A stretch of DNA of 64,000 nucleotides from the NCBI GenBank assembly GCA_902617825.1, contig CACMYE010000004.1:1-64000 (forward strand). Reading direction: 5' to 3'. This document shows positions 51,350-54,653 of the stretch, one piece after another. Source of the stretch: an uncultured Pelagibacteraceae bacterium. GTDB taxonomy: Bacteria; Pseudomonadota; Alphaproteobacteria; Pelagibacterales; Pelagibacteraceae. Both the position numbers and the translations under genes were made by a program. Numbering within the stretch: position 1 is the first letter of the stretch; every line of letters begins with the position of its first letter. The notes under the pieces were generated by a model. It was not told the origin of the DNA, did no database searches, and saw nothing but the letters and a program-made list of their open reading frames with translations.

Positions 51350-51672
51350 CATATTTGGTGAATGACAAGTGTATTAAATGTAAGCACACAACGTGTGTTG
51401 ATGTTTGCCCTGTTGATTGCTTCTATGAAGGTAAAAATATGCTTGTAATTAAACCTGATGAGTGTATAGATTGTGGCGTTTGCGAACCAGAATGTCCAGT
51501 TGATGCCATTAAAGCTGATACCGAACTTGGAAGTGAAAAATGGTTAGAGATTAACACAAAATATTCTGAGATCTGGCCAAACATAAGTGAAAAAAAAGAT
51601 CCACCACCGGATCATGAGAAATTTAAGGATGAGCAAAATAAGTACGAGAAATATTTTAAAGAAAATCTTTAA
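51346..51672 (+). CDS. fdxA: Ferredoxin FdxA (7Fe-type)
   Basis: [49 protein letters not shown]. Confidence 0.95.
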
Positions 51673-52516
51673 CAGAAAAGCCAAAAAAAAAGTGAAAAAA
51701 AAAGTTACTAAAAAAAAAGTTACTAAAGCTGAAGTAAAAAAAATAAAAAAAATAATTACAAAAAAAATTAAAAAAATTTCAAAAAAAGCACCTGCGAAAT
51801 CTATAAAAAATAAAAAAAATAAAAAAACAGTTTCAACTCTAACGGTACCAAAAGTTGATAACTTAAGAATCTCTAAAACTAACGAAGCAAAACCAGAGAT
51901 AAAGAAAGTAAAAAAACAGGAAACTGAAAAAAGAGAATACAAAATTAAAGATTATATTGTTTATCCTAAACATGGTGTTGGACAAATCACGGAGTTTAAA
52001 AAAATAAATATAGGTGGGATTGACGTTGAGACTTATGTAATAAAATTTGAAAAAGATAAAGCAAATGGAATGGTACCAGTTAATAAGCAGTCTCATTTAA
52101 GACCCTTGGCAACTATTAATCAGGTTAATAAATGTATTTCAATTCTTAAGAGTAAGCCAAAAATTAAAAGATCAATGTGGAGTAGACGGGCACAAGAATA
52201 TGAAGCAAAAATTTCCTCCGGAAAAATTTATGAATTAGCAGAAGTGGTTAGAGATTTAAATAAAGGTGATGATCTAATGGTGGATCAATCTTATAGTGAA
52301 AGGCAACTCTTTGAAAAAGCTTACGAAAGAATTTTATCTGAGTTTCAGATTATTTTAAATTTATCGCTGGAGGATACTCAAAAAAAATTAGATAAAGCCT
52401 TAAAAAGAAACATGGGTAGTCAATCACAAACTGCACCTGTATCAACTAAAGCATCTTCAACAGAACTACAAGTAGAAGAACCACTTCAAGATACTGACGA
52501 ACCTATTGAGGAGTAA
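51587..52516 (+). CDS. CarD/CdnL-family RNA polymerase-binding regulator with lysine-rich N-terminal extension
   Basis: CarD core [50 protein letters not shown]...RPLA; start ambiguous (51587 overlaps fdxA; in-frame ATG 51629 and GTG 51692 also possible). Confidence 0.9.
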
Positions 52517-52557
52517 AAAAACGCCTCTCACACAAATTGTAATGAGAAGCGTTTTTT
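52515..52557. terminator. Bidirectional Rho-independent terminator between carD-like gene and the Lys-rich mini-ORF
   Basis: AAAAAACGCcTCTCA...TGAGAaGCGTTTTTT stem with one mismatch, A-run on the left and T-run on the right, between convergent genes. Confidence 0.85.
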
Positions 52558-52575: not shown

Positions 52576-52665
52576 CTATCTTCTTCTTTTCTTAGCTTTT
52601 TTCTTAGCTTTTTTCTTAGCTTTTTTCTTAGTTTTCTTTGCCGCTTTTTTTCTTTTCTTAGGCAT
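52576..52665 (-). CDS. 29-aa Lys/Arg/Ala-rich histone-H1-tail-like basic mini-protein
   Basis: Minus-strand ATG CCT AAG AAA AGA ... AGA AGA AGA TAG reads MPKKRKKAAKKTKKKAKKKAKKKAKKRRR; GGGAG Shine-Dalgarno 6 nt before ATG; own promoter-like element and downstream terminator; absent from supplied track (<60 aa). Confidence 0.75.
   Translation of the reverse strand: MPKKRKKAAKKTKKKAKKKAKKKAKKRRR
52591..52626 (-). repeat. 12-bp tandem repeat (3 perfect copies, partial 4th) encoding AKKK units
   Basis: cttagctttttt x3 on the + strand, within the mini-ORF. Confidence 0.9.
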
Positions 52666-52689
52666 CTTTAGCTCCCTTTTTTAGTTAAA

Positions 52690-52706
52690 CGAATCAAAAT
52701 GATTCG
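52690..52706 (-). promoter_or_regulatory. 5'UTR hairpin upstream of the Lys-rich mini-ORF
   Basis: Perfect inverted repeat CGAATCA-AAA-TGATTCG between the promoter-like element and the RBS. Confidence 0.6.
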
Positions 52707-52717
52707 CTCTTACTTTA

Positions 52718-52746
52718 TTTTTATTTTTTTCTATAAGTTATGTCAA
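52718..52746 (-). promoter_or_regulatory. Sigma70-like promoter for the Lys-rich mini-ORF
   Basis: Minus strand TTGACA (52741..52746, consensus -35), 17-nt spacer, TAAAAA (52718..52723) as -10. Confidence 0.55.
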
Positions 52747-54568: not shown

Positions 54569-54653
54569 TGGTGGGCGAAGAGAGAATCGAACTCTCACTT
54601 CTTGCGAAACACGATTTTGAGTCGTGCGCGTCTACCAATTCCGCCATTCGCCC
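54569..54653 (-). tRNA. tRNA-Leu(CAA), CCA encoded
   Basis: Minus strand GGGCGAATGGCGGAATTGGTAGACGCGCACGACTCAAAATCGTGTTTCGCAAGAAGTGAGAGTTCGATTCTCTCTTCGCCCACCA; class II variable arm; anticodon loop CTCAAAA. Confidence 0.96.

What the first reader, a model, noticed from the sequence alone, without database searches (positions are those of the whole stretch)
52576..52746. Unlisted 29-aa histone-H1-tail-like basic mini-protein gene with a complete expression cassette
The minus strand encodes MPKKRKKAAKKTKKKAKKKAKKKAKKRRR, almost entirely Lys/Arg/Ala. It has a consensus TTGACA -35 with a plausible -10, a perfect 7-bp 5'UTR hairpin, a GGGAG Shine-Dalgarno 6 nt from ATG, and a shared bidirectional terminator 20 nt past the stop. 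All parts are visible in sequence and argue for a real, perhaps strongly expressed gene below usual ORF-length cutoffs. The composition resembles (AKKK)n tails of bacterial H1-like proteins such as Hc1/HctB and AlgP. Inference: a minimal nucleoid- or RNA-binding peptide in a streamlined genome.
Basis: partly seen in the sequence, partly recalled or inferred. Interest (0 to 1): 0.78.

Follow-up and report, generated by a model that had tools for sequence, protein, structure and literature searches.

The report
Conserved histone-tail-like mini-gene in SAR11
The tiny 29-residue, almost purely lysine/arginine/alanine gene is real: every SAR11 ocean bacterium that could be checked has a version of it beside carD, under the same promoter and leader motif, and it most likely makes a stripped-down histone-H1-like peptide that coats DNA (or RNA), though its function is untested.

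Summary
All described parts are at the stated coordinates, and such an ORF did not arise in 200 simulated windows. The ORF is conserved in frame, convergent to carD, in 108 of 108 assessable loci of its family (six genera; one copy carries a frameshift) and, as a 76-91 aa protein, in 11 of 11 assessable loci of the sister family. Codon evolution is coding-like only in the annotated frame (pN/pS 0.32 against 0.88 and 1.09 in the other frames). The long forms carry (K)KAAPKKK / KRKPAKKK repeats like histone-H1-type bacterial tails (AlgP, PhaF, Hc1/Hc2), so the window's peptide is a minimal, tail-only version. The '5'UTR hairpin' is more than a hairpin. Its 5' arm, CGAATCA, is the most conserved 7-mer of the leader across the order and sits 33-35 nt after TTGAC[AT]. 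It contains a CcrM site (GANTC), and its reverse complement, TGATTCG, is the published extended GcrA motif. The genome encodes CcrM and GcrA. Best reading: a SAR11-wide core gene for a polycationic nucleoid-binding peptide, possibly under CcrM/GcrA control. Gene reality is near certain; DNA binding and cell-cycle control are inferred. An RNA/ribosome or polyphosphate role is not excluded.

The parts
52576..52665 (-). Mini-ORF, 29 aa MPKKRKKAAKKTKKKAKKKAKKKAKKRRR, stop TAG included
   Evidence: conserved in frame in 108/108 assessable family loci, one of them frameshifted; pN/pS 0.32 in this frame only
52672..52676 (-). Shine-Dalgarno GGGAG, 6 nt before ATG
   Evidence: AGGGAGCTAAAG/A directly before ATG in 86 of 102 distinct loci
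52690..52706 (-). Inverted repeat / RNA hairpin CGAATCA-TTT-TGATTCG; both arms are GANTC (CcrM) sites and match the GcrA extended motif TGATTCG
   Evidence: CGAATC in 95/95 distinct f1 leaders and CGAATCA in 10/10 distinct f2 leaders; motif literature
52718..52723 (-). Weak -10-like hexamer TAAAAA (17-nt spacer)
   Evidence: within a conserved AAAAAAATAAAAATA block in relatives
52741..52746 (-). -35 element TTGACA
   Evidence: TTGAC[AT] lies 33-35 nt before CGAATC in 104 of 105 distinct leaders, the other being cut short
52515..52557 (.). Shared bidirectional intrinsic terminator between the mini-gene and carD
   Evidence: conserved in the relatives printed
51587..52516 (+). carD (CarD/TRCF RID and CarD_C domains), convergent neighbour, with a lysine-rich N-terminal tail
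   Evidence: the tail is absent in the non-SAR11 alphaproteobacteria examined

Best explanation
A genuine, vertically inherited core gene of SAR11 (Pelagibacterales) encodes a tail-only, histone-H1-like polycation. Shown: the gene, its frame, RBS, promoter spacing, leader motif, hairpin and terminator are conserved; repeat number varies; the K/R/A(P) composition and C-terminal Arg/Lys cluster are kept; length runs from 21-35 aa (Pelagibacter-type and two sister genera) through 31-58 aa to 76-91 aa (sister family). Inferred: the peptide is disordered or becomes helical on binding, neutralises phosphate charge on DNA by repeated AKKK/KKAAP units, and helps condense or organise the nucleoid as H1 tails, AlgP/PhaF tails and chlamydial Hc proteins do. 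Inferred, weaker: the invariant CGAATCA (TGATTCG on the other strand) at the 5' end of the transcription unit ties expression to CcrM methylation and GcrA, i.e. to replication or the cell cycle, while the hairpin protects the short mRNA's 5' end.
For: ORF in all assessable loci: 108/108 in the family (one frameshifted) and 11/11 in the sister family. pN/pS 0.32 against 0.88 and 1.09 in the other two frames. SD-plus-start pattern in 143/248 order genomes, with no match to the reversed control pattern in any row shown. Only such ORF in the window; 0 in 200 simulated windows. Sister-family proteins such as MEELKVIFAKARKKAKKKAAPKKKRKAAKRKPAKKKAAPKKK... resemble AlgP's KPAA-repeat DNA-binding tail as described in PMC9239181. 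TTGAC[AT]-N33-35-CGAATC conserved; CGAATCA is the top-ranked conserved 7-mer, in 99%, 100% and 100% of leaders of the three groups. CcrM with RAMA domain in the own genome; GcrA in 37/41 relatives including the own genome. GcrA extended motif TGATTCG/YGAKTCK (PMC7987155). SAR11 has a CcrM homologue and conserved promoter GANTC predicts CcrM control (PMC3973325). No same-strand gene follows the terminator, so it is not a leader peptide.
Against: No expression, proteomic or binding data. Low-complexity polycations could equally bind rRNA, mRNA or polyphosphate. No Pfam, NCBIfam or PDB match, although HMMER/BLAST are weak on such sequence. The GANTC site lies near the predicted +1, not between -35 and -10 where GANTC-linked activation was seen in Caulobacter (PMC4287350). 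Long and short forms are linked by position, leader and composition, not by alignable unique sequence.
Confidence: 0.6

Rival explanations
1. The peptide is a small ribosome- or RNA-associated basic protein (in the way of bTHX or bS22) that stabilises rRNA or mRNA rather than DNA.
For: Tiny, Arg/Lys-rich, apparently core gene with a strong SD; C-terminal Arg cluster kept.
Against: No Pfam or NCBIfam match to such families, inconclusive for low-complexity sequence. Free variation in repeat number (21 to 91 aa) is unlike a ribosomal protein with fixed contacts. Leader carries CcrM/GcrA-type sites.
Confidence: 0.2
2. The peptide organises polyphosphate or other anionic polymer granules, as the AlgP tail helps to do in Pseudomonas.
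For: AlgP, with a KPAA tail, localises to and spaces polyphosphate granules (PMC9239181); the sister-family orthologues have similar repeats.
Against: No NTD that would dock to granules; no link to polyphosphate genes at the locus.
Confidence: 0.08
3. The locus is primarily an RNA element (sRNA or cis-regulatory hairpin) and the ORF is incidental.
For: Conserved hairpin kept by G-U and by re-paired variants in other genera; strong transcript folding.
Against: Frame-specific purifying selection, in-frame length changes with conserved start and end, conserved SD, long orthologues.
Confidence: 0.03
4. Lys-codon leader peptide controlling a downstream gene by attenuation.
For: Short Lys-rich ORF followed by a terminator.
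Against: No same-strand gene lies downstream; the next gene is convergent carD; the sister family has an 80-90 aa version.
Confidence: 0.01

Closest known systems
AlgP (AlgR3) and PhaF C-terminal KPAA tails, Pseudomonas
   Same: Lys/Ala/Pro tandem repeats, repeat-number variation, H1-tail-like composition (PMC9239181); closest to the 50-91 aa SAR11 forms
   Different: AlgP has a 124-aa helical N-terminal domain; the SAR11 proteins are tail only, and the window's version lacks Pro repeats and is 29 aa
Chlamydial Hc1/Hc2 (HctA/HctB)
   Same: Lys-rich H1-like repeats with size variation in Hc2 (PMC2848022 abstract)
   Different: Hc2 is 165-237 aa; stage-specific in an intracellular pathogen; no sequence link tested
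CcrM/GcrA-controlled promoters of Alphaproteobacteria
   Same: Conserved GANTC in the extended form TGATTCG/CGAATCA near a sigma-70 promoter; CcrM and GcrA encoded
   Different: Site lies at about +1 to +10 rather than between -35 and -10; methylation dependence untested
Unnamed sORFs of SAR11 strain HIMB5 (PMC6429828)
   Same: That study reports at least three SAR11 sORFs of unknown function
   Different: Identity of those sORFs is in a supplement that could not be read; carD is not named in the main text

Membership tests
Bacterial histone-H1-like proteins (AlgP/PhaF tail, Hc1/Hc2 type) | Low-complexity Lys/Ala(/Pro) tandem-repeat tail | tested here: met
   Window peptide has AKKK repeats; sister-family and g7 forms have KKAAP/KRKPA repeats
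Bacterial histone-H1-like proteins (AlgP/PhaF tail, Hc1/Hc2 type) | Repeat-number (length) variation with composition kept | tested here: met
   21-58 aa in the family, 76-91 aa in the sister family
Bacterial histone-H1-like proteins (AlgP/PhaF tail, Hc1/Hc2 type) | Match to a curated family model | tested here: inconclusive
   No match in Pfam, NCBIfam or PDB; these tools are weak on low-complexity sequence and no positive control was run
Bacterial histone-H1-like proteins (AlgP/PhaF tail, Hc1/Hc2 type) | Separate helical N-terminal domain (AlgP type) | tested here: not met
   Absent; sister-family forms have only a short MEELKVIFAKA-type N-terminus
Bacterial histone-H1-like proteins (AlgP/PhaF tail, Hc1/Hc2 type) | DNA binding or nucleoid association | not testable with these tools
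   Needs gel shift, ChIP or imaging
CcrM/GcrA-regulated gene | Conserved GANTC, extended TGATTCG, in the promoter region | tested here: met
   CGAATC in 95/95 distinct f1 leaders and CGAATCA in 10/10 distinct f2 leaders, at fixed spacing to -35
CcrM/GcrA-regulated gene | Organism encodes CcrM and GcrA | tested here: met
   CcrM with RAMA; GcrA
CcrM/GcrA-regulated gene | GANTC between -35 and -10 (the Caulobacter class linked to activation) | tested here: not met
   Site begins 34-35 nt after TTGACA, near the predicted TSS; position rule from PMC4287350
CcrM/GcrA-regulated gene | Expression depends on methylation or GcrA | not testable with these tools
   Needs experiment
Small basic ribosomal proteins (bTHX, bS22, bL36 type) | Sequence match to a ribosomal family | tested here: inconclusive
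   No Pfam or NCBIfam match; HMMER bias filters limit this
Attenuator leader peptide | Same-strand gene downstream of ORF and terminator | tested here: not met
   Next gene is convergent carD

The most novel reading that the evidence does not exclude
SAR11 bacteria carry a universal, replication-coupled (CcrM/GcrA-timed) protamine-like peptide: a histone-H1 tail reduced to as few as 21 residues that condenses the nucleoid of a streamlined free-living cell, with a reductive series from about 90 to about 21 aa preserved across the order.
Probability: 0.22. Interest if true: 0.82.

Novelty: new variant of a known kind. Interest (0 to 1): 0.62.

Why it matters
SAR11 is among the most abundant bacterial groups in the sea (general knowledge), and how its tiny cells pack DNA and time gene expression is poorly known. 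An apparently order-wide core gene for a 21-91 aa polycation, small enough to fall below usual gene-calling limits, would be a minimal natural H1-like peptide and a directly testable candidate nucleoid protein. Its promoter pairs a fixed -35 box with an invariant CcrM/GcrA-type site, offering an entry to cell-cycle control in bacteria for which no ctrA orthologue was found (PMC2877005).

Tried and rejected
(1) Pure RNA element: rejected by the coding signature. (2) Attenuator leader peptide: rejected by gene order. (3) Chance A/T-rich ORF: rejected by simulation and conservation. (4) Synonymous-only polymorphism inside identical-peptide groups is circular and was replaced by pN/pS across peptides of equal length in three frames. 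(5) Class- and family-wide protein searches found nothing but also missed a genome known to carry the gene (G125), so they are uninformative; pattern searches and direct reading of carD loci were used instead. (6) An early scan missed the sister-family orthologues because of its length and composition limits; reading the sequence and a wider scan found them. (7) Non-SAR11 carD loci (L095-L113) show no comparable gene beside carD; the gene elsewhere in those genomes is not excluded. (8) Viral contigs: no match to the start block. (9) Whether TTGAC-N31-37-GAATC is a general promoter module: only this one site in the window, chance expectation 1.1, so no evidence either way. (11) Literature searches found no description of this gene.

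Full report
WHAT WAS CHECKED. The minus strand of the window, 52665-52576, encodes MPKKRKKAAKKTKKKAKKKAKKKAKKRRR. GGGAG lies 6 nt from the ATG, a perfect 7-bp inverted repeat CGAATCA-TTT-TGATTCG at 52706-52690, TTGACA at 52746-52741 with a weak -10, and a strong palindromic terminator about 19 nt past the stop, between this gene and the convergent carD. The window is 28.8% G+C. This is its only ORF of at least 20 aa with at least 70% Lys+Arg, and 200 second-order Markov windows gave none. The sigma-70 match alone is not beyond chance; its conservation is what counts.

IT IS A REAL GENE. The relatives are SAR11 (Pelagibacteraceae / Pelagibacterales contigs). At the carD junction, 93 of 94 loci of the window's genus (L001-L094; the other contig, L089, ends at carD) carry a K/R/A ORF on the same strand, and all 15 loci from five other genera of the family do too: 108 of 108 assessable loci, 102 distinct sequences. 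One copy (L005) is broken by a one-base change in an A-run, which may be a sequencing error. Some loci are the same genome reached by two routes; the count of distinct sequences allows for that. AGGGAGCTAAAG or AGGGAGCTAAAA precedes the ATG in 86 of the 102. In equal-length groups of the genus, pN/pS is 0.32 in the coding frame and 0.88 and 1.09 in the other two (pairwise counts, not independent). A start-block pattern found 143 of 248 genomes of the order, with no match to the reversed control pattern in any row shown.

IT IS OLDER AND WAS, OR BECAME, LONGER. The sister family (f2, loci L161-L172) was first thought to lack it. Reading the sequence showed a gene in the same place and orientation with the same leader motif. 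It encodes 76-91 aa, for example MEELKVIFAKARKKAKKKAAPKKKRKAAKRKPAKKKAAPKKKKRKAAKRKPAKKKAAPKKKKRKAAKKKAAPKKKKKAARRKKRR, in 11 of 11 assessable loci (L167 is cut). Within the window's family the lengths are 22-35 aa (own genus), 21-24 aa in genera g8 and g9, 31 in g6, 36-38 in g5 and 37-58 in g7 (MAKKRKKAAKKKVAKKPAKRKVAKKKPAAKKRKPAAKKKAPAKKRKPAKKKTAKKRKR). The gene looks ancestral to the order. Whether the window's branch shrank or the other grew cannot be decided, because the non-SAR11 alphaproteobacterial carD loci examined have no comparable neighbour. The acyl-CoA ligase neighbour is found in 14 of 15 loci of the other family genera but in none of the sister family's, so the constant partner is carD.

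THE LEADER. TTGAC[AT] lies 33-35 nt before CGAATC in 104 of 105 distinct leaders across both families; the exception is cut short. CGAATC is in 95 of 95 leaders of the window's family, and CGAATCA is the most conserved 7-mer of the leader: 99% in the genus, 100% in the other genera and 100% in the sister family. A hairpin is formed in nearly all leaders. In the window's genus and g8/g9 the arms are CGAATC(A)/(T)GATTCG, with G-U pairs (GATTTG, GGTTCG) that keep an RNA hairpin but break the DNA palindrome. In genera g5-g7 the same CGAATCA stays while a different stem, ATCACTTAAA/TTTAAGTGAT or similar, forms just downstream. So there are two constraints: an invariant sequence motif and a 5'-end hairpin. 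The predicted transcript start (about 52711) would put the hairpin at the mRNA's 5' end, where such stems commonly protect short mRNAs (general knowledge; inference).

CGAATCA contains GANTC, the CcrM methylation site, and its reverse complement TGATTCG is the extended site for which GcrA activation was proposed in Caulobacter (TGATTCG, more broadly YGAKTCK; PMC7987155; Brevundimonas showed no such preference in the same paper). In 68 of 87 distinct leaders of the genus both arms are the exact 7-mer. The own genome encodes an N6 methyltransferase with the RAMA domain, the CcrM architecture, and GcrA is found in 37 of 41 relatives including this genome. GANTC is depleted in the window, 94 against 168-181 expected, as reported for CcrM-bearing alphaproteobacteria (PMC3973325); the same paper notes a CcrM homologue in SAR11 and uses promoter conservation of GANTC as a sign of control. 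Against this, the site lies near +1, not between -35 and -10 where activation-linked sites cluster in Caulobacter (PMC4287350). Cell-cycle control is a serious lead (my estimate about 0.4), not a result.

HOW IT PROBABLY WORKS. The conserved property is charge density with Ala (and Pro in long forms) spacing and a terminal Arg/Lys cluster, not a fold. AlgP's tail of KPAA repeats binds DNA, and repeat peptides do so in vitro (PMC9239181). By analogy the peptide binds DNA non-specifically and condenses or lubricates the nucleoid. RNA or ribosome binding (0.2) and polyphosphate (0.08) remain open. Failing a match to family models says little, because these tools handle low-complexity sequence poorly and no positive control was run; the class-wide BLAST-type search even missed a genome known to carry the gene.

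NOVELTY. I found no description of the gene in the papers searched. The P. ubique survey of intergenic regions lists no recognisable carD junction in its Table 1 (PMC2704228); the window's intergenic region, at 22% G+C, would fall below that survey's 26% cut. The HIMB5 survey reports at least three SAR11 sORFs of unknown function (PMC6429828); one might be this gene, but the supplement could not be read. Public protein annotation could not be checked. I therefore rate it a new variant of a known kind: a tail-only, miniaturised H1-like protein.

Noticed in passing
window 51587-51900: CarD itself carries a long Lys-rich N-terminal tail ([25 protein letters not shown]...), even longer in the sister family, absent in the non-SAR11 alphaproteobacterial CarDs examined.
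   Followed up: partly
L161-L172, leader before the sister-family gene: A conserved CCTCTAACTAAACCC...GGGGGGAG block could pair near and mask the Shine-Dalgarno, suggesting translational control in the sister family.
   Followed up: no
L005 (G092:C21): One copy has an extra A in an A-run that truncates the peptide to 16 aa; sequencing error or real slippage is undecided.
   Followed up: no
L189 and L191: Other SAR11 ORFs (352 and 232 aa open frames) begin with long Lys-rich stretches (MSKKNKKKKTKKTKKKVKKK..., MTKKKKKKIVKKKKK...), hinting at a general habit of polycationic tails in the group.
   Followed up: no
window 52639-52704, + strand: Weak sub-threshold Rfam match to the Pelagibacter rhtB motif (27.3 bits, cut-off 55) overlapping the leader hairpin; probably chance or shared AT-rich hairpin.
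   Followed up: no
window 54572-54653, - strand: A tRNA gene (Rfam 60.1 bits) overlaps the 5' end of the mechanically called acyl-CoA ligase ORF, whose true start must lie further in.
   Followed up: no
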